From Halobaculum sp. MBLA0143 (GTDB taxonomy: Archaea > Halobacteriota > Halobacteria > Halobacteriales > Haloferacaceae): a DNA stretch of 64,000 nucleotides. The stretch covers positions 434,001 to 498,000 of the forward strand of contig NZ_JBGKAC010000001.1 in assembly GCF_041361465.1 (NCBI RefSeq), given 5' to 3'. Shown in pieces: positions 24,725 through 45,325 of the stretch (positions are counted from its first letter, which is position 1; every line of letters begins with the position of its first letter). The notes under the pieces were generated by a model that was not told where the DNA came from, searched no databases, and saw only the letters and a program-made list of their open reading frames with translations. The translations under genes and the position numbers were made by a program.

Positions 24725-24797
24725 GCCGGTGTAGCTCAGCTGGCAGAGCGATTCCTTCGTAAGGAATAGGCCGAGGGTTCAAATCCCTCCACCGGCT
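24725..24797 (+). tRNA. tRNA-Thr (CGT)
   Basis: Cloverleaf: acceptor GCCGGTG with CACCGGC and discriminator T; D arm GCTC-AGCTGGCA-GAGC; anticodon stem ATTCC/GGAAT with loop TTCGTAA, so the anticodon is CGT (threonine ACG codons); T arm GAGGG-TTCAAAT-CCCTC. An upstream GATTAAGT (about 24687-24694) fits a TATA box. Its 3' end is duplicated 157 bp downstream at the border of the accessory island, showing this gene was an integration target and remained intact. Confidence 0.95.
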
Positions 24798-25459: not shown

Positions 25460-25906
25460 TCACCAGTCCAGCTGTAGTTCCGCGTCGAGGAACGCTTCCA
25501 CACTCCCGTACTCGTTCTCGACGACCTCGCACAGTTCGCGGTTGTCCCGGAGCCCGCCGCGGGTGATGTTCGCCGATCCGACGTAACGGAACTCCGGTGT
25601 GACAATCGCCTTCGCGTGAAGGTCATCGACGCTCTCGACACGGACGCGTTCGGGGAGCCGGCGCCGGACGTAATCGTTGTGTGACTCGCCCTCGCGCAGG
25701 TACACTTGGACTTCCGTCTCGACCACGGAGAGTGCAGTCGAGAGGCGTACTCGCCGCGGTAAACCACGCTCGGGGTCGGTCACTGGTAGCGAAATCCGCA
25801 CGTCGCTCAGCCACGGAGAGACGACGGCGACCCTCTCCGACCGCACCAGTGCGAATCCGAGGAGCGCTCCCAGCGCGTCAGAAGTCGAGGAAAATGCTCG
25901 TGTCAT
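25460..25906 (-). CDS. PLD-superfamily phosphodiesterase/nuclease (DpdK/DrmC-like)
   Basis: 148 residues with one HKD-type motif: HAKAIVTPEFRYVGSANITRGG (residues near 95-116), i.e. His-x-Lys followed by Gly-Ser-x-Asn; the usual Asp of HxKxxxxD is replaced. VAVVSPWLSD near residue 30 matches the first strand of PLD nucleases that dimerise to form one active site. ATG at 25906 overlaps the 3' end of the helicase gene by 29 bases, so both are co-translated. Small PLD proteins beside helicases occur as DpdK in dpd clusters and DrmC in DISARM. Predicted effector nuclease of the island. Confidence 0.75.
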   Translation of the reverse strand: MTRAFSSTSDALGALLGFALVRSERVAVVSPWLSDVRISLPVTDPERGLPRRVRLSTALSVVETEVQVYLREGESHNDYVRRRLPERVRVESVDDLHAKAIVTPEFRYVGSANITRGGLRDNRELCEVVENEYGSVEAFLDAELQLDW

Positions 25907-28900
25907 CGAACTCTGCCGCAGGTGTGGTTTCGAGGCCGAACATCGTCTCGACCGTCGCACTCGCGTCGACACTCCGGAGGAGGTGGTTGCGGAGTCGCTC
26001 GGCAACGACGTAGCTAAGCCCGTCGCCCTGCTCGACGCCAGCGATACAGCCCGACAGCTGAAGCGTCTCGACACAGTCGTCTACGTCCGGAGAGTGGAAC
26101 AGCGTCTCTAGTCGGTCGTGATCGACGCTGTCGTCGACGAGGGTGTCGACGGCCGACTCGGGGTACTCGCGCTCCCCGCCCAACTGGGCCTCGGCGACAG
26201 TGTGTTTGATCCTGAGCGCAGTCGTAGTCGACAGTGTCTCCGAGTCGCGCCCGAGCTGCCGACAGCGGTCGACCCCCGCCAACACCTCTTGTGTCACCTG
26301 GTCGACGACGTACTCGAACGGGGTGTCGAGCGTGGCGTCAACGGCGGCTCGAACGCCTGACTCGGCGATGTCTGGAGAGAGCCGGTCGACGAACGCTTCG
26401 CTGGTCCACAGCCGTTCGGCTTCGACCTGTGGGTTGTAGCCGACACGGAGAAGCGACTCCAGAACGCTCCCTGGGTCGCGGTCGATCTCCTCGAAGGCGA
26501 GGTCAACGACACCCTGGCCCCCTTCGGTCCGTTCGAACACGTACACCTCCCGTTCGGCTTCGTCGAACCCGTACAGGAGACTCGTCGTGTTGACACTGCT
26601 CACGTCGGCGACGAGCTGAAGCAGGAAGTGCGCGGCCGTGTGGTGGACCAGATACTCGAACGGTACGTCGGCGTCCTCGGGCTGGTACTGCTCTACGGCC
26701 GCTCGGACACCGTCACCGAGGCTGTCGAGGAACGGTCCGAGGTCGAACACGAGCCCCCGGGTGTTCAGGTGAAATCCCAGCGGGCGCTCCGGGCTCTCGA
26801 TCCGGCGTTCGTCTCGCTCGGATGCGAACCGGTACACCCACTCGCCGTCGACCTGTATCGGATCCGCGGGCGTGATTTCGAGTGTGACCCCTTCGAGCGT
26901 GACTGTGGGCGACACGTCCGCGAGTGCGAGGTTGCCGACCTGTTCGTCGACGTGCCGGTCTCGCAACTGGGTGGCGACTTCCGGTTCGGCGTGGATCTTT
27001 CCCTCTTCGTAAGTGTCGTGCCGGAGACAGTCTCCGTCGGTGTGGGTCAGACAGACCGGACAGTACTGGACGACGTTCTGCGCCTCGTCGCCGGCGAGAT
27101 CTTCGTACTCCGTGAGCCGGATCTCGTCGGGGACGAGGACACCGTCCTCCTGACGGCCGTCGACACTCTCGGTGAGCGTGAACTGGACGGTGCCGTCGTC
27201 GGTGACCTCCGTCCGCGGGAGGAAGGCACGAAGCGTGCCCTGGTCGGACCGGTACTCGCTGCGGTACGGAACGTACGTGCTGAGGATACTGTCGATCGAC
27301 TCCTGGCTACCGTCGACCGCGTTCTGGTCGCCGAAGACAGTGACGAACCGACCGGCAGAGCCGTAGTAGTCCGGTGGGACGAACCAGATCTCTTCGTCCA
27401 CCGACTCGCCGGCCGCTTCCCAAAACCGACTGACGTAGTAACTACACCGGAGAAGGTGTTTGACGCCGTACAAGCTCTTGTACGGCTGCTCGCTCAGGTC
27501 GATGTACGCTTCGAGTTCGTCGACTGCTTCACCGAGATAGAACAGTTGGGTCCGTTGGTCGAAGTACCGTTCCAATCGGCCGTCCGACTGGAGATCACGG
27601 AGCCGTTCGAGCACGTCGTCCACCTCGTCGAGTCGACCGGCGTTCACCCGGGGGACAGCCCCGTCGTCGGCACGGTCGGCCGCCCGTTGGATCGGACGCA
27701 TCCGCCCCGAGACACCGAACAGCCTGTCGACGACGCTCTCGAACTCGGAGACCGACTCGGTCGGTGTCCACGACCCGCGCGTCGCCGCCGCCGTCTCCTC
27801 TCGTAGCGCCTCGAGTTCGGCTTCGAGTTCCTCCGGGTCTCCCGGCGGTGACTCCCCGGCGCTCTCGATCCGGTCGACGTAGCCCTGAATCTGTCCCCGG
27901 AGGCTGTCGATCAGGTCTCGGAGCTCGTCGCGGACACGGAAGGTGTACTCTCGGACGGCCTCGCTTCCGCGGACGATCGTGTCGCCGTCCCGATCGAAGT
28001 GTTCGGTCAGCTCGGCGAGTTCGGCGTCGACCTCCTCGGCGGTCGCCTCGACGGCGGCCGATAGCCCCCCGGCGACGTGCTCCGACAGCGCTGGCTCGCC
28101 CGGCACGTCGACCGAGCGGTCGAACCACTCGTCGAAGAACGTCTGCGGGTCGGTCACGAACTCGTAGACGGCATCGTAGCCCAACTCCTCACGGAGGAAC
28201 CGGTCGAGAAACTCGAGGTGTTCGTCTCGCTTCGAATCGAACCCGCCGCGGTACTCCGCCTCGACGGCGCTCGCACACTCCGAGTACAGCCGCAACGTCG
28301 AGTGAATCCACTCGACGACGGGGTTGTCGATCTTCAGCGGAGTCCGAATGTCCGATCCGAGGAAGCGTTCGGCCCGGTAGAAGACGTTCGCGTCGTCGGT
28401 GAGGTTCGAGAGGAGCACGACGACGTGAGCGTCGTCTCCACGCTGACGCCCGGCGCGTCCGGCACGCTGGTTGAACGACGACAGGTCCCACGGTGTCCGG
28501 TACTGGGTGACGACGCCGATGTCACCGATGTCGATTCCGACCTCCAAGAACGAGGTGGAAAACAGGAGGTTGCTGTCGGCCGCCTCGCCGGCGTCGAACC
28601 CCTCGTCGGCGTACACGCGGGTCGTGTTCAACGGTCTGTCGACGAACGACCGGCCGAACGACGACGCGACCGCCGGCCAGTTCTCCTCTCCGTCACCGCC
28701 GAAGTGGTAGCGCCACAGCCCCCGGTCTGCGTCTGCCTTCCGGAACTGCGCGGACTTCTGGTTGATCTGGGAGATACTGTCGATGAAGGACAACACCTTA
28801 CTCTCGCTGCCGTCGGCGTCGGGGCCGGTGAGGGTGTGCCCGAGCAGCATCGACTGTTGGATCGCCATTGAGGAGACGGGGACATCCTCGGCCGCAGACA

Positions 28901-29993
28901 GGAAGTAGTAGTGCACACTGTCGTCGTGGCTGTCGTCGTAGTCGCTGTCCGGGGGTTCGACGGTCTCGATCCGGTCGTCGTCGTCGATGCCGAAGATCCG
29001 CCGACCGAACTGTTCGGGGTCGTCGATGGTCGCGCTGGAGCCGATCCACCGCAGCGGGCTCTCGGAGACGCTGTCGACGTTCCGGACGATCCGCGCCGCG
29101 TGAGCTCCCCGAAGCTGAGTGTAGAGGTGGACCTCGTCGAGCACAATCGTGTCGAGGTGGTCGACGAGATCGTAGTTGGGCTTCAGTGCGAAGCTCTCCA
29201 GCGATTCGAGCGTCGTCAGCAGGATGTCGGGACGACTGTCGTGGACGACATCACTGCGCGGGAGGACAACCTGACGGTGGTCGAACCGGTGGCTCGGGTC
29301 GGCCTCACACTGGAGTCGGTAGCCCCGACCGTCACGGGTCACTTCGAAGGCGTTGGGGTCGCCGTCGTCGCCACACCAACAGTTCGTGAGTGCGAGCCGG
29401 TCGGGGCCACCGGCGCTCCGCTCGACGTAGTCTCTCTGGCCCACCTTGTCGTTCCGGTACGGCTGGCCGCCGGTGTAGAGCCCGACGGAGAGGTCTGTCC
29501 CCGTCTGCTCGCCGATCCGGTGGACGTACTCCAGCACACGTTCGAGTTGGTCTTGCAGCAGTGCTCGCCGTGGGTAGACCATCGCCACGCTGTCCTGTCG
29601 ATCGTCGACGAGGTGCTGGAACAACGCCCCCAGGAACGCCTCCGTCTTGCCGAAGCCCGTCGGCGCCGACAGGACGGCCGCGGTCGACGACCCACGACGC
29701 TTCGCCTGGCGGTGGAGCCGATTCACCGTCTGCCAGCTGTCCACTTGGAAGTCGAGCGGATCGAACTCGAAGATGTCCGCCACCCGCTGGACGAACTCGT
29801 CGTCACCGTCGTACGGCGAAGAGGCACGCCGGTCCTGCCGCTCGTGTTCGTACTTCACCGCGTCCGCGACGTACGGACGATCACCCTGATCGTCCGAGTC
29901 GAACAGCTGCCGGTTGGACAACATCGCGTCCAGTAAATCGGCGACTCCGTCGGGGTACCGCGTCTCGTCGGAGGCTCGATCGAAGTAGCGCAC
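25878..29993 (-). CDS. Giant DEAD/DEAH-box helicase with DUF1998-like C-terminus (DpdJ-like)
   Basis: 1371 residues. Superfamily 2 helicase core: Walker A APTGFGKT (Lys 116), DEVH at 286-289, GSSATID (motif III), then helicase lobe 2 with LLFSTSFLEVGIDIGDIG and FNQRAGRAGRQRGD (motifs V and VI). Lobe 1 carries a cysteine cluster between motifs I and II. A long helical region (about 640-900) follows, then YCPVCLTHTDGDC (zinc-ribbon-like) and a DUF1998-like segment (HTAAHFLLQLVADVSSVNT, YVFERTEGGQGVV). GTG at 29993 is chosen since CCTTTTTTAC (complement, 30020-30029) is placed for a leaderless start. It is co-transcribed with the PLD nuclease. It resembles DpdJ; a DISARM DrmA/DrmB-type role is the alternative. 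Confidence 0.75.
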   Translation of the reverse strand: MRYFDRASDETRYPDGVADLLDAMLSNRQLFDSDDQGDRPYVADAVKYEHERQDRRASSPYDGDDEFVQRVADIFEFDPLDFQVDSWQTVNRLHRQAKRRGSSTAAVLSAPTGFGKTEAFLGALFQHLVDDRQDSVAMVYPRRALLQDQLERVLEYVHRIGEQTGTDLSVGLYTGGQPYRNDKVGQRDYVERSAGGPDRLALTNCWCGDDGDPNAFEVTRDGRGYRLQCEADPSHRFDHRQVVLPRSDVVHDSRPDILLTTLESLESFALKPNYDLVDHLDTIVLDEVHLYTQLRGAHAARIVRNVDSVSESPLRWIGSSATIDDPEQFGRRIFGIDDDDRIETVEPPDSDYDDSHDDSVHYYFLSAAEDVPVSSMAIQQSMLLGHTLTGPDADGSESKVLSFIDSISQINQKSAQFRKADADRGLWRYHFGGDGEENWPAVASSFGRSFVDRPLNTTRVYADEGFDAGEAADSNLLFSTSFLEVGIDIGDIGVVTQYRTPWDLSSFNQRAGRAGRQRGDDAHVVVLLSNLTDDANVFYRAERFLGSDIRTPLKIDNPVVEWIHSTLRLYSECASAVEAEYRGGFDSKRDEHLEFLDRFLREELGYDAVYEFVTDPQTFFDEWFDRSVDVPGEPALSEHVAGGLSAAVEATAEEVDAELAELTEHFDRDGDTIVRGSEAVREYTFRVRDELRDLIDSLRGQIQGYVDRIESAGESPPGDPEELEAELEALREETAAATRGSWTPTESVSEFESVVDRLFGVSGRMRPIQRAADRADDGAVPRVNAGRLDEVDDVLERLRDLQSDGRLERYFDQRTQLFYLGEAVDELEAYIDLSEQPYKSLYGVKHLLRCSYYVSRFWEAAGESVDEEIWFVPPDYYGSAGRFVTVFGDQNAVDGSQESIDSILSTYVPYRSEYRSDQGTLRAFLPRTEVTDDGTVQFTLTESVDGRQEDGVLVPDEIRLTEYEDLAGDEAQNVVQYCPVCLTHTDGDCLRHDTYEEGKIHAEPEVATQLRDRHVDEQVGNLALADVSPTVTLEGVTLEITPADPIQVDGEWVYRFASERDERRIESPERPLGFHLNTRGLVFDLGPFLDSLGDGVRAAVEQYQPEDADVPFEYLVHHTAAHFLLQLVADVSSVNTTSLLYGFDEAEREVYVFERTEGGQGVVDLAFEEIDRDPGSVLESLLRVGYNPQVEAERLWTSEAFVDRLSPDIAESGVRAAVDATLDTPFEYVVDQVTQEVLAGVDRCRQLGRDSETLSTTTALRIKHTVAEAQLGGEREYPESAVDTLVDDSVDHDRLETLFHSPDVDDCVETLQLSGCIAGVEQGDGLSYVVAERLRNHLLRSVDASATVETMFGLETTPAAEFDDTSIFLDF

Positions 29994-30181
29994 GTCGCCT
30001 CTCTGGAGGGTGAGAGGGCGTAAAAAAGGTCGGGTCCCGCCGAGTCTACCGGAGATCGCGCGGACCGACGGCGTTGTCACTATCCGCCGTCGCTGGCGTC
30101 GTGGTGGGAATCATCTGTCGTTGGGCGTGACTTTGAGTTTAGACGTAGCTCGCCGCGGGGCGAGCGTCGGTCGGTTCATCG

Positions 30182-30442
30182 CTAGCCTCGGTTCAGGTAC
30201 TTGAGTGCCGCACAGACGAGCGGGACAGCCAGAATCCCGACAGGCACCCACGGGGGCAATGTGAAGCCTATCAGCCAGGCCAATCCTTTGAGGAGACCGA
30301 CCGCTGGGCTAATCCGACAGTAACCCTGCCAAATCTCCTGCATCGGTGTGACCTGCCCACCGTTGGATGGTCCGTCACCGTCGCTGTCGCTGTCAGTTGT
30401 CTCGCTGTTCGCCTCGTTCGTACCTCGTGTCTTCTCAATCAT
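30182..30442 (-). CDS. Small acidic membrane protein with duplicated N-terminus
   Basis: 86 residues: an Asp/Ser/Glu/Thr-rich hydrophilic head (MIEKTRGTNEANSETTDSDS) and a C-terminal half with two hydrophobic stretches (about 48-62 and 64-82, LKGLAWLIGFTLPPWVPVGI). The head is repeated just upstream at 30444-30539. GC is lower than in core genes. No family recognised; it may belong to the integrated element or to the defence cassette. Confidence 0.5.
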   Translation of the reverse strand: MIEKTRGTNEANSETTDSDSDGDGPSNGGQVTPMQEIWQGYCRISPAVGLLKGLAWLIGFTLPPWVPVGILAVPLVCAALKYLNRG

Positions 30443-30539
30443 ATCAGATTTTAGCGCTGGGTAGCCGCCCATCGCCGTCGCTGTCGCTGTCAGTTGTCTC
30501 GTTGTTCGCCTCGCCCGTGCCGCGTGTTGTCTCAGTCAT
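30378..30539 (-). repeat. Imperfect 65-bp direct repeat making two tandem N-termini
   Basis: Bases 30378-30442 and 30475-30539 match at most positions and are offset by 97 bp. Both encode, on the complement, ATG plus about 24 codons of the same acidic head (M-I/T-E-K/T-TRGT...). The upstream copy is a 31-codon ORF (30444-30539) that stops one base before the start of the downstream gene. It looks like a local tandem duplication followed by loss of the first copy's membrane half. Confidence 0.6.
30444..30539 (-). pseudogene. Truncated tandem copy of the small acidic protein
   Basis: 31 codons, MTETTRGTGEANNETTDSDS followed by a short unrelated end and TGA. It matches only the hydrophilic head of the 86-residue neighbour. 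Either a decayed duplicate or a real micropeptide translated ahead of the neighbour, since its stop and the next ATG are separated by a single base. The frame extends upstream to 30878 in basic, low-quality sequence that I do not regard as coding. Confidence 0.45.
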
Positions 30540-31454
30540 CTTTCGATTTGGCTGTTGCTGGTACCCCCGATACACCGGCGTCTGTCGCAGTCGGCTGGAG
30601 CTATCGCTGCTCCTCCGCCCCTGCGGCCGCTTGACACCCTGGCGTCGGGGTGGTGGCCGAGAAGCTTCACGCTTCACGACCACGTCGTGCTGGTTCGCTC
30701 CGCCAGTCCCCTCGCCCACTTCTGTAGCAGGGACAGGTTCTCTTCCGCCTGGCGGTGGTCTCCTCTTCACGCTGACGTACGGCGGACTAGCTCGCCCCTT
30801 CTTGCACCCATCGCCGGGCGCAGCAAGACTTGCCATCCGTTCCCGAGGGTTCTCAATGCCTCGGGGAGTCGCGTACATTCCCGTGTATATAACAGGGAGG
30901 CCATGGTTATAAACCTTTGTTCCAGGATTACAATAGATAGATAAACAAGATAATGTCGACTATATTTTGCCTTGTATGTAGACAGTATGATCAGGAGTAG
31001 AAATTTGAGGATTTCCTGTGGTCTGTGAGGGGAGGGGGAGGGGGGTCCGACGAGGTTGTGTGTGGTATCGAGCCTAAAGTTTGAATCAGACATCCATGGT
31101 TTGGACACAAGTCTCGGCGGGGATGGCTCCTCCTCTTAAATGGGTGTCTTCGCCCAGGTTTATTTGGAATGCTGATGCTTGAAATAATGTTTGAGGGTCG
31201 GACTACTTCTGCAGTGACTCCTACACTTTGGAGGCAGTATTTCATAGTTCTGGAATTCTGGCCCTCCCGTATACTGCCTCTCCAGCCAGCACAATAGCTC
31301 CAAGGGCGCTCTAGAGAGAAATTCGCTCTAAAGAGAGGCTTACGAAGCACAGCAGTAATTCAAGACGCATCAATACAGCCAGTGTAATAGCTATGACATG
31401 AGAGCGCCAATGCAGAGACAAAGATCTTAACCCACACGATCCCCACCACGCTCC
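30540..31454. other. Long AT-richer non-coding region with promoters
   Basis: About 900 bases. 30540-30880 is GC-rich but has no convincing gene. 30885-31440 is strikingly AT-rich (GTGTATATAACA, GGTTATAAACC, GATAAACAAGATAATG) with stop codons in all frames, unlike the rest of the window. A purine tract of G4-A-G5-A-G6 lies at 31029-31045. At the right end GATCTTAA (31423-31430) is placed 25-32 bases before the GTG at 31455 and is the promoter of the TGT operon. Possible decayed insertion sequence or replication/regulatory DNA of the element; nothing more can be identified. Confidence 0.5.
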
Positions 31455-31967
31455 GTGAACACGCTGCTCGTCCAATCCTGCTCTTCTCGGAAGACAGCAA
31501 CGACAGAGCCTCTCCCGGCGATAGAGCTGTACGACGGCTACTTCTACCGCATCCTGAAGAAGGCGCGCCGTGAGACGGATGAACTCCCGGTCGATATCCG
31601 GATTCTGTCTGCCGAACACGGACTACTCCACCCGGAGACGCCCATCGAGCCGTACGACCGAGAGATGGACGCCGAGCGCGCCGCCGAGTTACGCGAGTCC
31701 GTCGTCGCGACGCTCGCCGACCTCGCGGGCGACTACGACCGGGTGGTAATTGTCGGGGGCACACAATACCGCTCCGCGACCGAGGGGCTCGCGGCGGCGA
31801 CGGACACGCCGGTCCACTACGTTCGCGGCGACGGGATCGGGGAGATGGGGGGGAAGCTGAAGCGGTTCCTCCACGGTGACGACGCGGCAGTCGTTGACGA
31901 CACCTCGACGGACGACGATCCACGTCGAGCAGACGAGCAACGACCGTCGAGCTGCGCGGGGGACTGA
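31455..31967 (+). CDS. DUF6884-like protein (ArcS/YaaA-related fold), first gene of the TGT operon
   Basis: 170 residues. The pattern LLVQSCSSRKT...PAIELYDGYFYRILKKAR...DIRILSAEHGLLHPETPIEPYD is that of DUF6884 proteins: an N-terminal Cys-Ser-x-x-Lys strand, a 'LY.g.f' helix and 'SA.HGLl.p...i.pYd'. This resembles the Cys/Lys signature of the ArcS core domain, so it may act on the 7-deazaguanine base or on DNA. GTG at 31455 is fixed by a TATA box at the leaderless distance. The stop TGA overlaps the ATG of the TGT gene by one base, so it is coupled to a base-exchange enzyme. The C-terminal 40 residues are disordered and acidic. Confidence 0.65.
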   Translation: MNTLLVQSCSSRKTATTEPLPAIELYDGYFYRILKKARRETDELPVDIRILSAEHGLLHPETPIEPYDREMDAERAAELRESVVATLADLAGDYDRVVIVGGTQYRSATEGLAAATDTPVHYVRGDGIGEMGGKLKRFLHGDDAAVVDDTSTDDDPRRADEQRPSSCAGD

Positions 31968-33238
31968 TGTCGAACACGCGCACGCACGCGGACGGAGACG
32001 AGCGAGACGGAGACGAGCCACCGTTCGCGTTCACCGTCGAGGCGACCGCCGGCGACGCGCGAGCGGGACGGCTCCGCGTCCGCGACACGGAGCTTCCCAC
32101 CCCGGCGATGTTCCCGGTGGTCAACTTCTACGGCGGTGGTCGCCCGAGAAGCTTCTTCGGCGGGGGGATCTACCGAACCGTGAAGGAACTCGCCGTCGGT
32201 GTCGAGCGTGTCGACGGCGTCGCCGCGCCGGAGTACTTCGACGCTACGATGATGTCCGTCGCCTCGCTCACCGACTACGGAATCTCCGAAGACCTGTTCG
32301 AGACGTACCGCGACACGGAGCTGTTGGAGCGTTCGGAGTTCGAGTCGTTAGAGAGCCTGCTGTTCCTCGACTCGGGCGGGTTCAAGTTCCTCGGCGACGG
32401 CCAGTTGGAGGGGAACGGCTTCGCCGTCGAGATGGACCAGACGGCTGTGTACGAGATTCAACGTGATCTCGGCGGCGACGTGCTCGTCAACCTCGACCAC
32501 CCGATTGCACCGGACGACGACCACGCGACCCGCGTCGAGAAGGCCAGGAAGACCGCCGAGAACGTCGAGACGTTCCTGTCGCTGACGGCCGACAGCGACG
32601 CGGCGCTGTACCTCACTCTCCACGGCTACAACTATTCGATGATGGACGAGTTTTTGGAGACAGTCACGGATGTCGTCCCGGCGTCGGTGCTTCGGGAGGG
32701 GTTCGACGGCATCGCGCTCGGGAGCCTCGTTCCAAAGAAAGACGATCGCGAGGCGTTGATCCAAGCGGTGAGTGACTGCCGTGAAGTGCTCGCCGACTGG
32801 GGAATGCGCGACCGACCATTGCACGTCCTCGGAATCGGCAGCCGTGCTATCCCGCTCCTCGTCGGAATGGGCGTCGACAGCTTCGACTCGACGACGTACG
32901 TCCAGAACGCCATCAACGGGAAGTACCAACAGTCGTTGGTCGACACCGTCCCGCTGGACGACGCCGACTTCGACCGGTGCGACTGTCCGGTGTGTTCTTC
33001 CGACGTGCTCGTCTCGCGGATGCGTGGCGACGCCGAGTACAAGAAAGACGTGCTCGGACCCGTCGCCGTTCACAACCTGATCGTCCAGAAGCGCGACGTG
33101 GCGGCGCTCAGAGAGACCGTCGCGTCGGGCGAGACCGGGCAAGTAATACAGTACCTCGAAGATACACTCGGACACCACGAGACGATGAGGAAACACGCAC
33201 ACGCAGTCGTCAACCGTTCGTTGGGAGGGTACTTCTGA
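31967..33238 (+). CDS. TGT-family transglycosylase, DpdA-like (predicted DNA guanine to preQ0 exchange)
   Basis: 423 residues. The queuine/archaeosine tRNA-ribosyltransferase fold is clear: LFLDSGGFKF (general-acid Asp 135), substrate-pocket strands (LVNLDHPI, YLTLHGYNYS), GIALGSLVPKK, and GMGVDSFDSTTY, where Asp 307 of FDS aligns with the catalytic nucleophile. The zinc site is complete: Cys 338, Cys 340, Cys 343 (CDCPVC) and a His in AVHNL about 25 residues on. There is no PUA domain, and the protein is shorter than archaeal tRNA TGT, as in DpdA. Placed between a DUF6884-like gene and a GHKL ATPase gene (adjacent TGA-ATG) inside a helicase/nuclease island, it more likely acts on DNA than tRNA. 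Confidence 0.8.
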   Translation: MSNTRTHADGDERDGDEPPFAFTVEATAGDARAGRLRVRDTELPTPAMFPVVNFYGGGRPRSFFGGGIYRTVKELAVGVERVDGVAAPEYFDATMMSVASLTDYGISEDLFETYRDTELLERSEFESLESLLFLDSGGFKFLGDGQLEGNGFAVEMDQTAVYEIQRDLGGDVLVNLDHPIAPDDDHATRVEKARKTAENVETFLSLTADSDAALYLTLHGYNYSMMDEFLETVTDVVPASVLREGFDGIALGSLVPKKDDREALIQAVSDCREVLADWGMRDRPLHVLGIGSRAIPLLVGMGVDSFDSTTYVQNAINGKYQQSLVDTVPLDDADFDRCDCPVCSSDVLVSRMRGDAEYKKDVLGPVAVHNLIVQKRDVAALRETVASGETGQVIQYLEDTLGHHETMRKHAHAVVNRSLGGYF

Positions 33239-34771
33239 ATGCTCCGTGAACCGACAGTGAACGAGGTCAACGAGTTTCTGGAGATCGCCTCCGACTTCGA
33301 GGACCCGTTGGAGGTGATCCGGGAGTCGTTGTCGAACGCCTACGACGCCGAGGCGACGACGGTCCGGATCGCCATCGAGCACGCCGAGAACGGCTCCGAC
33401 ATCGTGGTCGCCGACGACGGCCACGGCATGGACGACCGCGACCTCGCGTCGTTCTTCGACCTCGGTAACTCCCGCAAAGAGGACAGTATCGGGTACAAAG
33501 GACACGGAACCAAGATTTTCTACAAGTCCGACCGGATCACAGTCGAGACGGTCCACGACGGGACGGAGCGACGCGCGGTCATGGACGACCCCTGGCGAAA
33601 GCTCAACGACCGTGTCCTCCCGGAGTACGAGGTGACGGAAGACGACACGGACCTCGACGAGATGTCGACTCGAATCCGGATCGAGAACTTCCGGTCTGGC
33701 CAGGGGTTCGACCCGTCGAAGCTCACCTACAACAAGATCGAACACTACCTCTACTGGAAGACAATCGTCGGGTCGACCGCACACCACTTCGGAGACGACC
33801 ACCGTCGGATGCAGGTCGTCGTCGACCTCGACGAGCGAATCGACGACACCCGAGACAGTCTCGACACCCGGACGGGGTTCGAGTTCCCGGACGAACAGCT
33901 CGACCCCGGCGACGGCGACCAGCCGGCGGCGTACATGTGCAAACACTACCCACCCCGGGAGCTGTCGGTCGAGTACGACGGCGGGGAGACGACGGTTCAG
34001 ATGGTCGGGATGGTCGGCGGGAAGGCGGCGCGAAACGAACTCCCGACCTACGGGAAACACTCCGCGCAGTTCGGCGTCTGGCTCGCCAAAGACCACATCA
34101 AAGTCGAACGGATCAACGACACCCTCGCGCACGACAACGAGTTCCTCCACTTCATGTTCGTCGCCAACTGCCAGGACATCGAACTGGCCGCCAACCGGGA
34201 GTCGATCCGGAACAAGGCGAGTCCGGTGTTCGCGGCCATCCGCGAGGAGGTCTCGTACTACATGTCGAAGGTCGCCAACGACCCCTGGTTCGAGACGTAC
34301 CTGGAGGCTCGAAAGCGTGGTCGGTACGAGCGCCGCGTCGACGACGAGGCCGGCGGCGTGTCCGAGCGTCGCGCGGCCGTCGCCGACCGTGGCGGCTTCT
34401 CACCGTCAAACCGCCCGGAGCTGCTGGTCGGCCTCCAGCGTGCTACGGCCCGCGACGACACTCTCGACGTGACCGTCGAAGACTTCGCTCCCGGCTCCGA
34501 GGTCAACGCGCTGCTCACACGCGACGGAACGCTCGAGAACGCCGCCGTCGCACACACCCTCACCGGGCTCCTCGACGACGGCGTGCCACTCGAACCGGTC
34601 GACGTGGTCGTCTGTTGGGAGCAGGGCGACCCGACGGAGCTCCGCGAGTGGGAACGGCGCGACTACTTCGGCGGCAGCCTCGCAGTCGACACCGACGCCG
34701 GACGGCTCACCTACGACTCCGACGGTCGCCACACAGTCGACGTGCTCGAACTCGCACCGTACTTCGAGTGA
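33239..34771 (+). CDS. GHKL (Hsp90/MORC-like) ATPase
   Basis: 510 residues. Bergerat ATP fold: RESLSNAYDAEA (N-box with Glu/Asn, residues about 28-40), DDGHGMDDRDL (D-x-G-x-G, about 59-69) and GYKGHGTKIFYKSD (glycine-rich lid, about 83-96). The middle half is a transducer-like alpha/beta region (FGVWLAKDHIKVERINDT, ANCQDIELAANRESIRNK), typical of MORC/Hsp90-like GHKL proteins in bacterial conflict systems. The C-terminal 120 residues are a separate domain with no match I can name. It begins at the base after the TGT stop codon. Role: ATP-driven clamp or DNA remodelling linked to the modification or defence; inference. Confidence 0.8.
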   Translation: MLREPTVNEVNEFLEIASDFEDPLEVIRESLSNAYDAEATTVRIAIEHAENGSDIVVADDGHGMDDRDLASFFDLGNSRKEDSIGYKGHGTKIFYKSDRITVETVHDGTERRAVMDDPWRKLNDRVLPEYEVTEDDTDLDEMSTRIRIENFRSGQGFDPSKLTYNKIEHYLYWKTIVGSTAHHFGDDHRRMQVVVDLDERIDDTRDSLDTRTGFEFPDEQLDPGDGDQPAAYMCKHYPPRELSVEYDGGETTVQMVGMVGGKAARNELPTYGKHSAQFGVWLAKDHIKVERINDTLAHDNEFLHFMFVANCQDIELAANRESIRNKASPVFAAIREEVSYYMSKVANDPWFETYLEARKRGRYERRVDDEAGGVSERRAAVADRGGFSPSNRPELLVGLQRATARDDTLDVTVEDFAPGSEVNALLTRDGTLENAAVAHTLTGLLDDGVPLEPVDVVVCWEQGDPTELREWERRDYFGGSLAVDTDAGRLTYDSDGRHTVDVLELAPYFE

Positions 34772-34814: not shown

Positions 34815-35498
34815 TCACGACAGCGACAGTTCGACGTACGCCGACAGGTCCGACTCGGCAAGCAGCTCTCGTTCTTCTGCCGACAGATCACCGTAGGTGA
34901 GCCGTTCGTCGTCGAGCAGTCGCTGGACGACCGGCCACACCTCCGTGCCGCGGTACGGACCGAACAGTTCGTCCTGCAGCTCCTGTGAGTGGCCACGGAA
35001 CTCGTCGCCCACCGTCGCTGCGTCGTCGAGCGCAGCCTCGAAGTCGTCCGCGCCGACCTCAACGTTCGCCCGCCAGTTCCAGTCGTCCAACAGAGTCTCG
35101 ATGGCCGCCAGCCGCTCGGGGTCGACCCGCTCCACCCGTTCGTTCAGCCGTTGCATCGCTCGGACGCGATTCAACGCGTCGAGCCGCTTCGGCTGCACCT
35201 CGTTTTCCAGTCGTCGCTTCGCGGCAGACACCTCCGTCGACACGTCGTCGAGTTTCTCGTCTAGGCTCGCGTACGAACCCTCGTCGAGCAGTCCTCGAGC
35301 GTCGTCGACCGCCGCCTGCGCCTCCGGTTCGATTTCGAACTCGGCGTCGAACAACGCTGCCGCGAACGCACGCTGGAGGAGTGTCTCTTCCATCTCCACC
35401 GCGAGGGCCGACAACGACTCCGCCAGGTCTCGTCGCCGATACCGCTCCTGTGTCTGTCTGAGCTGTTCCGCGAAGCCACCCGTCGTATCACTCGACAT
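34815..35498 (-). CDS. Coiled-coil protein of the island (DpdI-like position)
   Basis: 227 residues, highly acidic and almost wholly helical, with a long heptad-rich stretch (LDEKLDDVSTEVSAAKRRLENEV, ALNRVRAMQRLNERVERV) that predicts coiled coil. No catalytic motif seen. Its ATG overlaps the end of the ATPase gene upstream by 11 bases, so the two are translationally coupled. In bacterial dpd clusters dpdG, dpdH and dpdI are consecutive; the size, order and coupling here suggest the DpdI role, but sequence homology cannot be proven by eye. It converges with the GHKL gene. Confidence 0.6.
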   Translation of the reverse strand: MSSDTTGGFAEQLRQTQERYRRRDLAESLSALAVEMEETLLQRAFAAALFDAEFEIEPEAQAAVDDARGLLDEGSYASLDEKLDDVSTEVSAAKRRLENEVQPKRLDALNRVRAMQRLNERVERVDPERLAAIETLLDDWNWRANVEVGADDFEAALDDAATVGDEFRGHSQELQDELFGPYRGTEVWPVVQRLLDDERLTYGDLSAEERELLAESDLSAYVELSLS

Positions 35499-38475
35499 AG
35501 TAGTTGCTCACCTCCGAGAACCGGCCCCCGAGACTGTCGGTCTCACTGCCCGGGTCGAGCGTGACGTTCTGGAACCGCTCGTACGGCTCGCTCCGCCGAA
35601 CGTACACGTCCAACAGCCGCACCCGCAGTTGGTCTAACGGCGACCGACTCTCCGCGAGTTCGAGCGCCCCGTGTGCCGCGTCGATGGTGTCCTCGAACGC
35701 CTCGTCGTCGACCCGGGCGAACTTCGCCAGCGACTCCCGCACCTGCGGGCTGACACTGTCGTACGTTCGGAGCGTCTGGTGGATCTCTCTCACCTCGCCG
35801 AGGTCGATCACCCCGAGTTCGTTGACGACCGTCTCGATTGCCGTAGGGTTACCGCCCGTCTCGATCAGCGCGTCGACACGCTGCCGGAGGTCGTACGCGC
35901 CGTTGGCGACCGATCGGAGCTTCTCGTCGCCGATTCGCACGTCCGTGCTGATGTTCTGGATGTACCCTCGACCGAGGTACTTCAGCACCTCGTGCGGGGG
36001 ACTGTTCGACAGTCGACTACGAAGCTCCGGCAGATCTAACGCCGAGCCGCCGACGCCGAGTAGTTCACCCAGCAGGTCTTCGAGCACACCGGCGTCTTCG
36101 ACCGCCGACTTCAGCTCTCGGAACTCCTCGACCGACAGGCTCTGTTCACACCAGTCGACGACACGGGGGTGGATCTCGAAGTCGTCGGTCTCACCGTACC
36201 GCTCGGCGAACGTCTCCGCGGTCACCGGTCGGGTGGGGTCTTCGAACACCATCGCCGCCGCGTACGTCGAGACGGCGAAGTCCACGAGACCGTAGTCTGC
36301 GTGCCGCTTGTACAGTACGTCGTCGTCTTCGAGGTACGTCGCCCTGAGCGTCCGCCGCCAGGCGTCGGCGTACCCCGTCAGCTGCGTTCCCATCCGGTCG
36401 AACAGTTCGTCGCGCCGCGGCGTCCCCGTTCCTTCCTCACACCGAACACCGTACGCCAGGAGTCGACGGAGCGCAGACGACCGGAAGTCGTCCGGGTCGA
36501 CCTCGATCTGGTACGGTTCCGGCGCGTCGGTCGTGTTGCCGAAGACGAACGGGTCCTGTTGGTTGCTGACGTTGAACGTCAGGTTCGTCCCCTCGTACAG
36601 CGCGAATCCGTCGGTGAGGTACTTCAGCGCGTCACGCAGCCCGGCACGGAGGTAGATCCCCGTCTGGCTGTTCTCGCCCGGTCGTTCCTTCCAGGCACCG
36701 ACGAGCGGCTTGTGTTCGTCGATCTTCTCTTGGACGAGGTCCCGTGTCGTTCCGCCGGTCCCGCTGCCGCCACCACCAGTGCCAGTGCCGCCGCCACCTG
36801 TGCCAGTGCCGCCGCCACCTGTGCCAGTGCCGCCGCCACCCGTGCCAGTGCCGCCGGTGGGGGGCGACCCCCCGCCACCGCTCCCGGAACGAATCCGAAG
36901 TGTTCCGTCGTCGCTGTCGCGGCCCCCTTCGACGTGTTCCGGGAGTTCGTCGACATCGAAGCCGAACGCCATCGGGAACCGGTAGTCGACGTGTATCCAC
37001 CCGTCGTTCTCCTCGCCGTACCACCGGAACACCTCCGCGAGCTCCGGGTGTGCCTCCTCTACGTCGTCGTCGACGAGCAACGGCTGTTTCAGCGTCTTCA
37101 ACGCGCCGGCGCTCGACGGCGCGTCGACGCGACCCTTGTAGTAGTCCTCCAACACCTCGAACACGATCATCACGATCTCTCGTGGCGACTGCTGGCTCTC
37201 GGGCAGTCCGGCGTACACCCGTTCGACGAACCGCTCGTGGAACGGGAACAGATCGCGGAACGACTCGTCACACAGCCCACACGTCGCACAGGTGGTCCCG
37301 TCGGGTGCCGGGCGCAGACGCTCGACGGCCCCGTCCGCGTCGCGGTCGTACGAGACGCTCCCGTCGAGCGACTTGAAGTACCCCAGGTACGGCCTGACGA
37401 AGTCGACGACCGACTCCTCGTCTAGGAACAACACGCTGTTGGAGTCGGGGTCGTTCGTCTGGAAGAACTCGAAGCGGTCCTCTGCAGTCCGCGTGTGGAG
37501 TACTTCCGTAGAGTCGCGAGTGCCGGCGACGACGAAGTCCCAGTTGTCGCCGTCCTTGTCACGCTCCATGTAGTTGCGGAGCTGACGCGCCTCCATCGCG
37601 GTGATGGCGAAGTCCTCGAACACGATCACCGGCCGGGTGTCGTCGAAGGCAGCCCCGACACGTTGGAGCACCTCGTTCAACGACGCCGTGCCGTACCGGT
37701 CACGGATCTCTCGCCACAACTCCGTGTTCAGCGCGTCGATGGCAGTCTCCTCGTCTGGGGCCTCCCCGTCTGTGAACACCTCGAAACAGTCGCGCTGCCG
37801 GTATGCACCCTCGGAGACGAACTTCACCTCCGTCCCGTACTGCTCGCGCTCAACGAGCTGTTGGAGCTGACTCCGGACGTGATCCTGAATGCCGTCCTGT
37901 TGCTCGTTCGTGTAGTCGACGTCGAACCCGCGGTCCGCGAGGTTCAACAACGCGCCCGAGGACGCGTACCGCGCGACGGCGTCGGGCGTCTCGCGGATGT
38001 CCGCCTCCAACTCCTCGAACTCTGTCTTCCCCGGCAGTTCCTCACCGACGTGTTCCTGGTAGAAGTCGGGAATCCGGTCGGTCAGCAACGACATCAGGTC
38101 GTCGTCTTTGTCGACGTGGAGAATCGGCCGGTCGTCGTCGTCGAGCCGGTGGGCGAGGTACGCACACAGCTCCGACTTCCCGGTGCCGACCTCTCCTTCG
38201 ATGACGACGGCGAAGTTACCCCTGCGACTCTCGGAGAACAGTTCGTACACCTCGTCTTCGGAGACGACCGGCGCACTCGACACGTTCGCGCCAGTCGACC
38301 GGTAGACGTCGATCTCTCGGTGCGTGAAGTCGAACAGGTCCCGATCTTCCGACCGTACGGCCGCGACCTTGCTGAACAGTCGCCGGAGCGTCTCCTCTTC
38401 GACGTTGTCGAAGTGTGGACACCGGTCGTACTCCCAGGCGTCCGACTCCGCCGCCGGCGTCGTGTTCTGACTCAC
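35488..38475 (-). CDS. Large P-loop ATPase (DpdH-like)
   Basis: 995 residues. Walker A GEVGTGKSE (Lys 100) with the preceding strand NFAVVIE; Walker B PVIVFEDF near residue 283-290 and a sensor-like VVAGTRDS, consistent with AAA/STAND ATPases. CATCGLCDESF near residue 397 is a possible zinc knuckle. A Gly/Thr-rich hinge of 7-residue repeats (about 540-572) separates the ATPase half from a C-terminal helical half with several winged-helix-like segments. Its start overlaps the upstream gene by four bases (ATGA) and its end overlaps the downstream coiled-coil gene. Size and order match DpdH; PglY/BrxC-type BREX ATPases are the alternative. Predicted restriction motor. Confidence 0.7.
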   Translation of the reverse strand: MSQNTTPAAESDAWEYDRCPHFDNVEEETLRRLFSKVAAVRSEDRDLFDFTHREIDVYRSTGANVSSAPVVSEDEVYELFSESRRGNFAVVIEGEVGTGKSELCAYLAHRLDDDDRPILHVDKDDDLMSLLTDRIPDFYQEHVGEELPGKTEFEELEADIRETPDAVARYASSGALLNLADRGFDVDYTNEQQDGIQDHVRSQLQQLVEREQYGTEVKFVSEGAYRQRDCFEVFTDGEAPDEETAIDALNTELWREIRDRYGTASLNEVLQRVGAAFDDTRPVIVFEDFAITAMEARQLRNYMERDKDGDNWDFVVAGTRDSTEVLHTRTAEDRFEFFQTNDPDSNSVLFLDEESVVDFVRPYLGYFKSLDGSVSYDRDADGAVERLRPAPDGTTCATCGLCDESFRDLFPFHERFVERVYAGLPESQQSPREIVMIVFEVLEDYYKGRVDAPSSAGALKTLKQPLLVDDDVEEAHPELAEVFRWYGEENDGWIHVDYRFPMAFGFDVDELPEHVEGGRDSDDGTLRIRSGSGGGGSPPTGGTGTGGGGTGTGGGGTGTGGGGTGTGGGGSGTGGTTRDLVQEKIDEHKPLVGAWKERPGENSQTGIYLRAGLRDALKYLTDGFALYEGTNLTFNVSNQQDPFVFGNTTDAPEPYQIEVDPDDFRSSALRRLLAYGVRCEEGTGTPRRDELFDRMGTQLTGYADAWRRTLRATYLEDDDVLYKRHADYGLVDFAVSTYAAAMVFEDPTRPVTAETFAERYGETDDFEIHPRVVDWCEQSLSVEEFRELKSAVEDAGVLEDLLGELLGVGGSALDLPELRSRLSNSPPHEVLKYLGRGYIQNISTDVRIGDEKLRSVANGAYDLRQRVDALIETGGNPTAIETVVNELGVIDLGEVREIHQTLRTYDSVSPQVRESLAKFARVDDEAFEDTIDAAHGALELAESRSPLDQLRVRLLDVYVRRSEPYERFQNVTLDPGSETDSLGGRFSEVSNYYVE
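36761..36862 (-). repeat. 21-bp in-frame minisatellite in the ATPase gene
   Basis: Units of 21 bases beginning GTGCCAGTGCCGCCGCCACC start at 36779, 36800, 36821 and 36842; the first three are full copies (the third with one change at its end), the fourth diverges in its last third, and a degenerate partial unit precedes them. Each encodes Gly-Gly-Thr-Gly-Thr-Gly-Gly on the complement, making a flexible linker. Copy-number change by slippage would keep the reading frame and alter linker length. Confidence 0.85.
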
Positions 38476-39296
38476 GACAGCACCTCGATCGTGTTCGCCT
38501 CGGTGTCGATTCCGGACCGTCGCGGCACGTCGTCGAGCCCGACTGCACCCGCGTCACCCCGTTCGACGAGTCGAATCGTGCCGTCACGCACGAGTTCGAA
38601 CAACAGCCGGGCCAGCGGCGCTGGCACGGTCCCCTCCTGGAGCGTGACCGGCAGGAGGTTCGTCTGGAGCCACTCGAAGTACTCCCGAATCCCGAGGTAG
38701 TCGTCGCCGTCGGCCGCGAGCCTGACCGACGCCTCGATCAACTCCGGGGTCGGTCTGACGGCGTGCTCCCGGCCGGTCGTCTTGTACACTAACCCGAGGA
38801 AGTTCGCCTGCCGCGACCAGTTGACGAACTTCGGGTCGTTCAGCGTGATCGACCCCTGTGAGGACTGCGGATCGTAGCTCAGTTCGCTCCGGTACCAGTC
38901 GTCGATTCTGTCGTACAGCCCCGTGTCGTTGTTCTCGAAGTACTGGACATCGTGTTCGAGCATGTACTTGTAGATCAGGAGCACGACTGACTGCTTTCCC
39001 CAGTCGGGGCCCGTACACTCCCGGGCGAGGTTGTGGAGGATCGTCAACCGGAAGTCACGGTCGTCGTCACCGGTGTCGAAAGCGTACTCCACCGTGTGGA
39101 ATTCGTAGTCTTCCTTGCCAATCATCCGATACTGTCGCAGGCCGTTCAGGCCGTCGCTCAGCCGTTCTTCGTCGAACCCCAGTTCCGCTTCGAGTTCGTC
39201 GCGGGCTGTCACTCCACGATCGATTGCGTCGTAGAGGGGTTTGATCGGCTCCGGCGTCTGGAGCGTGTTGAGAACGTACCCCTCACTCGTACTCAT
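38472..39296 (-). CDS. Winged-helix-like island protein (DpdG-like position)
   Basis: 274 residues, no catalytic motif. The N-terminus (EPIKPLYDAIDRGVTARDELEAELGFDEERLSDGLNGLRQYRMIGKE) has the helix-turn-helix plus wing rhythm of a winged-helix domain; the remainder is mixed alpha with aromatic-rich segments (YKYMLEHDVQYF, IREYFEWLQTNLLPV). ATG at 39296 is supported by a TATA-like ATTAATATAC on the complement (39313-39322). It starts the three-gene unit ending at 34815 and overlaps the ATPase gene by ATGA. Order and size suggest DpdG; homology is unproven. Confidence 0.6.
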   Translation of the reverse strand: MSTSEGYVLNTLQTPEPIKPLYDAIDRGVTARDELEAELGFDEERLSDGLNGLRQYRMIGKEDYEFHTVEYAFDTGDDDRDFRLTILHNLARECTGPDWGKQSVVLLIYKYMLEHDVQYFENNDTGLYDRIDDWYRSELSYDPQSSQGSITLNDPKFVNWSRQANFLGLVYKTTGREHAVRPTPELIEASVRLAADGDDYLGIREYFEWLQTNLLPVTLQEGTVPAPLARLLFELVRDGTIRLVERGDAGAVGLDDVPRRSGIDTEANTIEVLS

Positions 39297-39473
39297 ACCC
39301 ACATATCGGCCACGTATATTAATGTAGCTTACTGTCGAGCAGCGACAGTACACCCGACGACCGTCGCGCCCCCGAGGAACACCGAAAAGCGGGGGTCACG
39401 ACGGAGCCACATCGACCACCCGATTGTGCCTGGACCCCCGCGGTCGACGACTGTCACCAGCTACGATCGAGAC

Positions 39474-40418
39474 TCACACGACTGCCGTGAGCGACCGCGT
39501 CAGCCACCCGTGGAGTCGCGCGTCGACCGGCGACGCGTCGGCTCTCAGTCGATCCGCGGCGTCTCGGCCCCGCTTGAGCGCCGGCATCTGGTTCGCGTGT
39601 GCCGGATCGAACGTCTTGCCGTCTCTCCCGACCCGCCTGTTGTACTCGGCGACGATCTCGCGTGCAGTGCCACGGTCCAGCTCCACCCGACGGCGGAGCC
39701 ACCGCGAAACGTCGTCGACGGCGTCGTCCGAGTCCAGCGGCGCGGTACCGTACTCCTCCGGCCGCGAGAACAATGCCGCGAACGTGTCGTACAATGGGAG
39801 GTACGGCGCGTCCGGCAGCGCCTCGAACAGTTCGACGGTGGTGCGGGGCGGCTCGCCTTCCACGAGCTCGTACAGCAGCGCGTTGTCCTGGACGAAGAGG
39901 TTCCGGGTGTCGGACAGCGGGAGGTGGTGGCCGAACCGCTCGTACCGACGCTCGAACGCGTCGAACACGCGGTCGTAGTCGCCGATCCGGTCTGCAAACG
40001 GCTCCTGATCCAACGGACGCTGTCCGCCGACGGGGGTGAACCGCCGGTCGTCCGTCACGACGACGAGCGACCCCTCGTGGGTGTACCGCTCGATTACTGC
40101 CGAGACGGAGTGGGTCGTCTCCGTCTCGTAGTGTCCGTTCGTCACGATACACAGTTCCTCTGGTTGGTCGTCGTCCGGCCCGAGCTCCGAGAGGTGTCGG
40201 TAGGCGAAGTCGAGGTAGTCGTACTGCTCGTACCCCCAAATCTGGCGCCACGTCGTCGGGTACGTCACGTCGACGACACCGAGGTACCGCAACGCCGGAA
40301 CGGCACGCAACAGCCGCCACCGACTGTTGTCCACGGGGTCGTAGACGACCGACACCCGACTCTCGCACAGCCGGGCGAGAACGGGCTCCTCCGGTGACGG
40401 GTCGGACGTGCGGTTCAT
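39474..40418 (-). CDS. Island protein of unknown function coupled to the helicase
   Basis: 314 residues, acidic with many aromatic and Arg residues. Visible pieces: VVYDPVDNSRWRLLRAVPALRYLGVVDVTYPTTWRQIWGYEQYDY, GSLVVVTDDRRF and NLFVQDNALLYELV. The alternation of hydrophobic strands and helices suggests an alpha/beta domain at the N-terminus and an all-helical C-terminus, but I recognise no family. Its ATG overlaps the stop of the upstream helicase (ATGA), so it is expected to work with it. In bacterial systems a helicase partner of this size may guide DNA loading; that is speculation. Confidence 0.6.
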   Translation of the reverse strand: MNRTSDPSPEEPVLARLCESRVSVVYDPVDNSRWRLLRAVPALRYLGVVDVTYPTTWRQIWGYEQYDYLDFAYRHLSELGPDDDQPEELCIVTNGHYETETTHSVSAVIERYTHEGSLVVVTDDRRFTPVGGQRPLDQEPFADRIGDYDRVFDAFERRYERFGHHLPLSDTRNLFVQDNALLYELVEGEPPRTTVELFEALPDAPYLPLYDTFAALFSRPEEYGTAPLDSDDAVDDVSRWLRRRVELDRGTAREIVAEYNRRVGRDGKTFDPAHANQMPALKRGRDAADRLRADASPVDARLHGWLTRSLTAVV

Positions 40419-45181: not shown

Positions 45182-45325
45182 TCTCGTTCGAGTCGCGGCG
45201 CCCAACCGCGGGCACCGTCGTCTGTGATCCTCGTTAGTTCTCGGCACGTAAGAAACCCACCGGACGACGAACACTCTCGGACGACCTCCGTGTCTGACAG
45301 TCCGACGCCTATCGACGACACTCGG

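What the first reader, a model, noticed from the sequence alone, without database searches (positions are those of the whole stretch)
31455..34771. Operon of DUF6884-like protein, TGT and GHKL ATPase
The three genes overlap or abut (TGA/ATG sharing one base; TGA-ATG), behind one leaderless promoter (31423-31430). A GHKL/MORC-like ATPase coupled to a DNA base exchanger is not part of the classical dpdA-K set. It might open or clamp DNA for base exchange, or sense unmodified DNA. The DUF6884-like protein shares a Cys-x-x-x-Lys strand with ArcS and could be a second base-tailoring enzyme.
Basis: partly seen in the sequence, partly recalled or inferred. Interest (0 to 1): 0.72.

Follow-up and report, generated by a model that had tools for sequence, protein, structure and literature searches.

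The report
Haloarchaeal 7-deazaguanine DNA-marking gene cassette
Salt-loving archaea carry a fixed three-gene cassette that most likely swaps guanine in their own DNA for a chemically altered guanine and tailors it, probably driven by an ATPase that descends from a DNA-cutting enzyme, and it sits beside several interchangeable sets of virus-blocking genes.

Summary
Three genes (DUF6884, tRNA-guanine-transglycosylase, GHKL ATPase) abut at the stated coordinates. They recur in the same order in all 30 haloarchaeal regions I fetched. The TGT and GHKL genes co-occur, adjacent and co-oriented, in 42 of 391 Halobacteria genomes; the only exception is one genome with a broken GHKL. A fourth, dedicated protein is usually nearby (window 45326-47311): a TGT domain fused to the ArcS catalytic motif, without the tRNA-binding PUA domain. 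preQ0-synthesis genes flank the cassette in 13 of 30 regions, so 7-deazaguanine chemistry is the best reading.

DUF6884 is a DpdC/YaaA/ArcS-fold enzyme with an invariant Cys-x3-Lys. GHKL is a MORC-fold ATPase. Its bacterial relatives carry an intact D...ExK nuclease motif that the haloarchaeal copies have lost. It is inherited with the TGT (r=0.96) more than with the restriction genes (0.69-0.73). DpdB is absent from all 31 genomes tested. I propose that GHKL is the modification-side ATPase standing in for DpdB.

The cassette sits beside interchangeable restriction modules: Dpd-type, Pbe, GmrSD, HerA. It is not a member of the DpdA family. No modified base has been measured. Verdict: new variant of a known kind (Dpd-like modification-restriction); mechanism inferred.

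The parts
31423..31433 (+). putative TATA-like element of a leaderless promoter
   Evidence: A/T-rich gatcttaac about 25-32 bp before the GTG; similar position in most of 17 relatives; not tested experimentally
31455..31967 (+). DUF6884 / DpdC-YaaA-ArcS-fold enzyme, predicted nitrile-processing (preQ0-tailoring) enzyme
   Evidence: Pfam 3.8e-16; PADLOC DpdC 1.5e-6; C9 and K13 invariant in 51/51; model Z 10.8 to YaaA, 10.1 to ArcS-like 2Q07
31967..33238 (+). DNA-type TGT (base exchanger), no PUA domain
   Evidence: Pfam TGT 1.5e-22; both catalytic Asp and CxCxxC...H zinc ligands kept; separate clade from DpdA and TgtA
33239..34771 (+). GHKL-S5 (MORC-like) ATPase with a degenerate nuclease-like C-terminal domain
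   Evidence: N-box E/N 51/51 intact; nuclease motif residues lost in haloarchaea but kept in 22 bacterial relatives; model Z 20.8 to MORC3
45326..47311 (-). TGT2: TGT domain fused to an ArcS (DUF5591) domain with PC-x3-KPY-x2-S-x2-H, no PUA
   Evidence: sister clade to the trio TGT (100/99); zinc ligands lost in this copy
34815..35498 (-). 227-aa protein at the DpdI position (after DpdH)
   Evidence: gene order as in a bacterial dpd locus; no detectable sequence similarity to DpdI
35488..38475 (-). DpdH-like AAA ATPase
   Evidence: PADLOC DpdH 3.7e-5; hhalign to DpdH E 1e-3 over 593 columns; 26 of 29 genomes with it carry the trio
38472..39353 (-). 293-aa protein at the DpdG position
   Evidence: overlaps the DpdH-like start as DpdG does in bacteria; weak collinear hhalign E 0.05
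39474..40418 (-). 314-aa protein of the restriction block, unknown
   Evidence: co-inherited with DpdH-like, r 0.96
40415..45274 (-). 1619-aa DEAD/DEAH helicase with MZB domain (Druantin/DpdJ-like)
25878..30080 (-). DpdJ-like helicase
   Evidence: NCBIfam DpdJ 5e-49; hhalign to bacterial DpdJ about 1e-44
25460..25906 (-). DpdK-like PLD (HKD) nuclease, short overlap with DpdJ
   Evidence: PLDc_2 3e-6; homologous cluster hits PADLOC DpdK 2e-16; translation with HAK...GSAN; start inferred

Best explanation
The trio plus the TGT-ArcS fusion (TGT2) is a haloarchaeal DNA-modification cassette. The TGT exchanges guanine in DNA for preQ0. The two Cys-x3-Lys enzymes, DUF6884 (DpdC-like) and the ArcS domain of TGT2, then work on its nitrile, giving an amide (dADG) and/or, with the host radical-SAM partner of ArcS, deoxyarchaeosine. 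The GHKL ATPase descends from a GHKL-nuclease that lost its cutting residues. It now uses ATP-driven dimer closure to clamp or distort DNA for the TGT, taking the place of DpdB. The mark labels self DNA, which neighbouring restriction modules read: here DpdH/J/K-like, elsewhere Pbe, GmrSD or HerA types. Shown: conserved gene set and order, co-inheritance, folds, conserved active-site residues, loss of nuclease residues, absence of DpdB. Inferred: DNA as substrate, the product base, the role of ATP, the coupling to restriction.
For: Trio 30/30 in order and TGT+GHKL in the same 42 of 391 genomes, adjacent. Island QueC+QueE in 13/30 regions, plus QueD and FolE in some. TGT catalytic residues intact and no PUA. 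TGT2 carries the ArcS motif; the five genomes found without TGT2 all have a tandem second DUF6884. DUF6884 fold = YaaA/ArcS, DpdC hit. GHKL N-box residues 51/51 kept, nuclease motif lost versus 22 bacterial relatives, MORC fold. DpdB absent from 31/31 trio genomes while both bacterial controls score. On the same 17 genomes GHKL follows TGT (r 0.96) more than the restriction genes (0.69-0.73). Restriction-type genes in 28/30 neighbourhoods; DpdH-like in 26 trio genomes of 29. In bacterial Dpd systems base insertion uses the DpdB ATPase, and DpdC makes dADG (as summarised in PMC12839542).
Against: No chemical or genetic data; no modified DNA from any of these strains is known to me. The TGT could act on RNA. 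In the window copy TGT2 has lost its zinc ligands, so its TGT half may be inactive. The grouping of trio TGT/TGT2 relative to TgtA is weakly supported (81/68). ATPase-exchange coupling is analogy with DpdB, and DpdB is said to be dispensable in some Dpd clusters (PMC12839542).
Confidence: 0.6

Rival explanations
1. The GHKL protein belongs to the restriction side: a MORC-like sensor that recognises unmodified DNA and loops or hands it to helicases and nucleases, and is merely encoded next to the TGT.
For: MORC/paraMORC proteins are described mainly in R-M operons with helicases and nucleases (PMC2292703); bacterial relatives carry an intact nuclease-like motif; DpdJ-, GmrSD- or HerA-type genes lie nearby.
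Against: It is adjacent to the TGT in all 42 genomes while the restriction partners change; two regions have none of the recognised modules (G259, G335); distances follow TGT (0.96) more than restriction genes (0.69-0.73); its nuclease residues are gone.
Confidence: 0.22
2. The cassette modifies RNA (tRNA or a viral RNA), not DNA, as a second archaeosine pathway.
For: The closest characterised relatives by profile are archaeal tRNA enzymes (TIGR00432 1.7e-29; ArcS NF040592 3.1e-28).
Against: Housekeeping TgtA and ArcS are encoded elsewhere in the same genome; no PUA domain in either island enzyme, while the chromosomal ArcS has one; patchy distribution, plasmid location and Dpd/Pbe/GmrSD neighbours fit DNA defence.
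Confidence: 0.12
3. An archaeal offshoot of the classical bacterial Dpd system that simply diverged, with GHKL an optional accessory and the TGT able to work alone.
For: DpdJ, DpdH and DpdK homologs and a matching G-H-I-J-K gene order; phages that encode DpdA carry 7-deazaguanine DNA without a dpdB being described (PMC6884629).
Against: The TGT is not in the DpdA clade and falls far below the DpdA cut-off (32.7 of 200 bits); the restriction block is inherited partly apart from the modification block; GHKL was never missing from a TGT-bearing genome in 42.
Confidence: 0.2

Closest known systems
Bacterial Dpd system (dpdA-K, e.g. Salmonella Montevideo)
   Same: TGT homolog + DpdC-like Cys-x3-Lys enzyme; preQ0 genes nearby; DpdH-, DpdJ-, DpdK-like restriction genes in a matching order
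   Different: TGT outside the DpdA clade; no DpdB; GHKL ATPase instead; extra TGT-ArcS fusion; restriction module often replaced by or joined with Pbe, GmrSD or HerA types; archaeal
Phage/archaeal-virus dG+ and dPreQ0 pathways (phage 9g, HVTV-1)
   Same: preQ0-based DNA base exchange; amidotransferase-type tailoring (Gat-QueC, QueF-L, ArcS)
   Different: no tblastn match of this TGT in 50,697 phage records; cellular, with GHKL and restriction genes
paraMORC3 (GHKL + restriction-endonuclease-fold C-terminus; Iyer et al. 2008, PMC2292703)
   Same: GHKL-S5 core and a C-terminal region aligning with the bacterial D...ExK region; bacterial relatives standalone, as described for paraMORC3
   Different: haloarchaeal copies lack the nuclease residues and are tied to a TGT gene; identity with paraMORC3 not tested on that paper's sequences
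BREX-Related Capture (BRC) systems (PMC12839542)
   Same: TGT in a defence locus without DpdB, with another NTPase suggested as DpdB substitute
   Different: BRC is built on PglZ, DUF6079, STAND NTPase, DUF4007 and HerA with optional TGT/GNAT; no DpdC; PglZ, DUF6079 and HerA were not found among the window genes scanned
Archaeosine synthase ArcS
   Same: TGT2 carries the DUF5591 domain with PC-x3-KPY-x2-S-x2-H
   Different: TGT2 has a full-length TGT domain closer to the trio TGT, lacks TGT_C2 and PUA, scores 98.7 of 440 bits on the ArcS equivalog

Membership tests
Dpd system | DpdA-family TGT (NCBIfam NF041059) | tested here: not met
   32.7 bits against cut-off 200; no match in the genome of relative L096; separate clade in tree
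Dpd system | DpdB ATPase | tested here: not met
   0 of 31 trio genomes, both bacterial controls positive
Dpd system | DpdC-type (DUF6884/YaaA) enzyme | tested here: met
   Pfam DUF6884 3.8e-16, PADLOC DpdC 1.5e-6, hhalign to two bacterial DpdC E 4e-5, YaaA fold; superfamily level only
Dpd system | DpdD-K restriction module | tested here: inconclusive
   DpdJ clear (5e-49), DpdH weak, DpdK present, DpdG/I by position only, no DpdD/DpdE recognised
Dpd system | 7-deazaguanine in DNA | not testable with these tools
   needs mass spectrometry
TGT superfamily | two catalytic Asp and zinc site | tested here: met
   DSGG Asp, SFD Asp and CxCxxC...H kept in the trio TGT sequences aligned
ArcS (for TGT2, 45326-47311) | PC-x3-KPY-x2-S-x2-H catalytic motif | tested here: met
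   Cys, Lys, Tyr and Ser invariant in 44/44, final His in 41/44; the same motif stands in the chromosomal ArcS
ArcS (for TGT2, 45326-47311) | TGT_C2 and PUA domains / equivalog score | tested here: not met
   absent in the window protein, present in housekeeping ArcS; 98.7 of 440 bits
GHKL-S5 / MORC-like ATPase | GHKL motifs with S5 domain fold | tested here: met
   N-box E/N 51/51; model Z 20.8, rmsd 3.4 over 293 residues to MORC3, tied with MORC2, TopoVI-B, MutL
MORC family proper | family-specific GhXhhpXXRhl motif in the S5 domain | not tested
   motif described in PMC2292703; not checked residue by residue
paraMORC3 | C-terminal RE-fold nuclease with D...ExK | tested here: not met
   D and E 22/22, K 21/22 in bacterial relatives; in 51 haloarchaeal sequences E in none, D in 2, K not among the 46 residues listed at that site
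BRC system | PglZ, DUF6079, HerA core | tested here: not met
   no such domains among the window island genes scanned; HerA-type gene near the trio in only 4 of 30 regions

The most novel reading that the evidence does not exclude
Haloarchaea mark their own chromosome with deoxyarchaeosine through a TGT plus TGT-ArcS pair of a lineage distinct from DpdA, powered by a former GHKL restriction nuclease that was disarmed and recruited as the base-exchange ATPase; the mark serves as a common self-label read by at least four unrelated restriction modules, including Pbe systems noted to lack a modification partner.
Probability: 0.35. Interest if true: 0.87.

Novelty: new variant of a known kind. Interest (0 to 1): 0.72.

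Why it matters
If true, it extends 7-deazaguanine modification-restriction to archaeal chromosomes by a separate TGT lineage. It offers a likely answer to what powers base exchange when DpdB is missing. It also gives a testable modification partner for some 'solitary' Pbe loci (165 of 553 PbeAC loci had no modification genes nearby, PMC6459918). The cassette is small and genetically tractable haloarchaeal hosts exist, so each step can be tested.

Tried and rejected
(1) Island-type TGT in viruses: no hit in IMG/VR or in phage records. (2) Bacterial loci with the same GHKL: about 42 relatives found, but none has a TGT, DUF6884 or TGT2 recognised nearby; so GHKL-TGT coupling is, on this evidence, haloarchaeal. 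(3) 'ArcS2 is a duplicate of chromosomal ArcS': rejected; its TGT half is sister to the trio TGT. (4) GHKL related to DpdB: no similarity. (5) Homology of the 314-aa protein and the 227-aa protein to DpdD/G/I by sequence: not found. (6) Loss of TGT2 in some genomes as a fetch artefact: of nine trio genomes searched, four carry it elsewhere (one with a stop codon) and five lack it. (7) The literature library held no report of this cassette; subscription papers, the 2023 Dpd biochemistry paper and the 2024 7-deazaguanine review were not held.
Full report
WHAT IS THERE. The window lies in a haloarchaeal genome (G000, 3.58 Mb). The three ORFs stand exactly as described, with a TGATG overlap and a TGA|ATG junction. 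Profiles identify DUF6884, TGT and a GHKL ATPase. An A/T-rich element about 25-32 bp before the GTG has counterparts at similar distance in most of 17 relatives, so one leaderless promoter is plausible but untested.

CONSERVATION. A GHKL relative occurs in 43 of 391 Halobacteria genomes (26 of 86 genera) and the island-type TGT in 42 of 391. These are the same genomes; the 43rd, G039, holds only GHKL fragments. In all 42 the TGT precedes GHKL on the same strand, with matched segments 2-37 bp apart. In 30 regions of about 40 kb (a few cut short by contig ends) the order DUF6884-TGT-GHKL is kept 30/30, at roughly 37-63% identity. The TGT-GHKL pair also sits on plasmids. Haladaptatus plasmid NZ_CP119784.1 carries the trio, further TGT genes of TGT2 size, DpdJ- and DpdK-type genes and the restriction block together.

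A FOURTH COMPONENT. Window 45326-47311 (-) looks like ArcS at first sight but is a fusion (called TGT2 here). The N-terminal TGT domain is sister to the trio TGT (100/99). The C-terminal DUF5591 domain carries PC-x3-KPY-x2-S-x2-H, with Cys and Lys in 44/44. It lacks the TGT_C2 and PUA domains of the chromosomal ArcS. Housekeeping TgtA and ArcS are encoded 1.5 Mb away. TGT2 lies in 25 of 30 regions. Of nine trio genomes searched because no nearby copy had been seen, four hold it elsewhere (one with a stop codon) and five lack it; those five carry a second DUF6884 gene directly upstream of the first. So nearly every cassette examined has two Cys-x3-Lys enzymes. The window copy of TGT2 has lost its zinc ligands although its Asp residues remain.

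CHEMISTRY. Trio TGT keeps both catalytic Asp and the CxCxxC...H site. QueC and QueE sit nearby in 13 of 30 regions, with QueD in at least 9 and FolE in at least 4, which points to preQ0. DUF6884 has invariant C9 and K13 (51/51). Its predicted fold (pLDDT 89) matches YaaA 5CAJ (Z 10.8, rmsd 3.3, 147 residues) and 2Q07 (Z 10.1), with the next row at 6.8. 2Q07 (AF0587) is ArcS-like: the chromosomal ArcS matches it at 1e-41. Bacterial dpdC is described as DUF328/YaaA-like (PMC12839542) and as DUF6884 (PMC11888242). Attack of the conserved Cys on the nitrile of preQ0 is my inference from these families.

THE ATPASE. The model (pLDDT 84) matches MORC3 (Z 20.8, 293 residues), tied with MORC2, TopoVI-B, MutL and others; residues 6-362 are covered. 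Bacterial relatives (24-28% over full length) are standalone and have a C-terminal GID...ExK motif (D and E 22/22, K 21/22). In 51 haloarchaeal sequences E is kept in none, D in 2, and K is not among the 46 residues listed at its site, while the N-box E and N are 51/51. This fits the paraMORC3 description (PMC2292703), with the nuclease disarmed. I did not test it against that paper's own sequences, and the C-terminal domain was not folded alone.

WHICH SIDE DOES GHKL SERVE? On the same 17 genomes, distance correlations are: GHKL-TGT 0.96, GHKL-DUF6884 0.87, GHKL-TGT2 0.83; within the restriction block 0.93-0.96; GHKL to the restriction block 0.69-0.73. Restriction partners vary: Dpd-type genes in 17 of 30 regions, PbeA and/or PbeC in 8, GmrSD in 9, HerA plus a 1280-aa protein in 4, and none recognised in 2 (names). 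Neighbourhood presence does not prove functional coupling, and some of these genes may be unrelated defence-island neighbours; only for the DpdH-like gene was co-occurrence with the trio tested genome-wide (26 of 29; Fisher 2e-26). DpdB is absent from 31 trio genomes while two bacterial dpd controls score. I therefore place GHKL with modification and propose that it replaces DpdB. A similar replacement by a STAND NTPase was proposed for BRC systems (PMC12839542), so the idea of substitution is not new; the GHKL case is, as far as the open literature held here shows.

RELATION TO DPD. The window also holds DpdJ-like (5e-49), DpdH-like (weak) and DpdK-like genes, and two small genes at the DpdG and DpdI positions. 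By strict tests it is not a DpdA system: the TGT fails the DpdA model and lies outside its clade, and DpdB is missing. It most likely works like one. The deeper placement of the TGT/TGT2 clade next to TgtA is weak (81/68) and long branches are involved.

LIMITS. No base was measured. Substrate, product and ATP role are inferred. Genome sampling and partial contigs may hide components. Absence from the literature was checked only in open-access papers. The distance correlations compare related genomes and are descriptive. The restriction-type genes were named by profile or tblastn hits to a single representative per cluster.

Noticed in passing
L213 (NZ_CP119784.1), 2393-32208: A Haladaptatus plasmid (MPF_T typed) holds the restriction block, DpdJ, DpdK, DUF6884, TGT, GHKL and two TGT2-sized genes in about 30 kb: a compact complete locus for experiments.
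   Followed up: partly
L038, L040-L041, L062 (G326, G002, G132 regions; G152 likewise): PbeC (with PbeA in G326 and G002) near the trio, with no Dnd modification genes noticed among the clusters examined: candidate modification partner for 'solitary' Pbe loci.
   Followed up: partly
L089:1768-5610 and L074:5826-7064: A HerA-type ATPase next to a 1280-aa protein with only a weak AAA hit accompanies the trio in four genomes; unknown defence module.
   Followed up: partly
L050:13524-14498, L046:13359-14201, L072:11405-12349 and neighbours: A recurring set of three to five genes (280-324 aa plus two others) near the trio in up to six genomes; the three scanned have no Pfam match.
   Followed up: partly
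L061:2881-3813: A 310-aa protein without Pfam, PADLOC or NCBIfam match precedes the tandem DUF6884 genes in the three TGT2-less regions fetched.
   Followed up: partly
window 45326-47311: The window copy of TGT2 has lost the TGT zinc ligands that several other copies keep, so its TGT half may be a partner subunit rather than an enzyme.
   Followed up: no
window 36752-36856: 21-bp tandem repeat encoding a Gly/Thr-rich linker inside the DpdH-like gene.
   Followed up: no
window 30372-30442 and 30469-30539: 71-bp direct repeat (86%) in two small minus-strand ORFs between the DpdJ-like gene and the trio; origin unknown.
   Followed up: no
window 24522-24797: tRNA-Met and tRNA-Thr genes lie at the left edge of the island, a plausible integration site; the empty site in relatives was not checked.
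   Followed up: no
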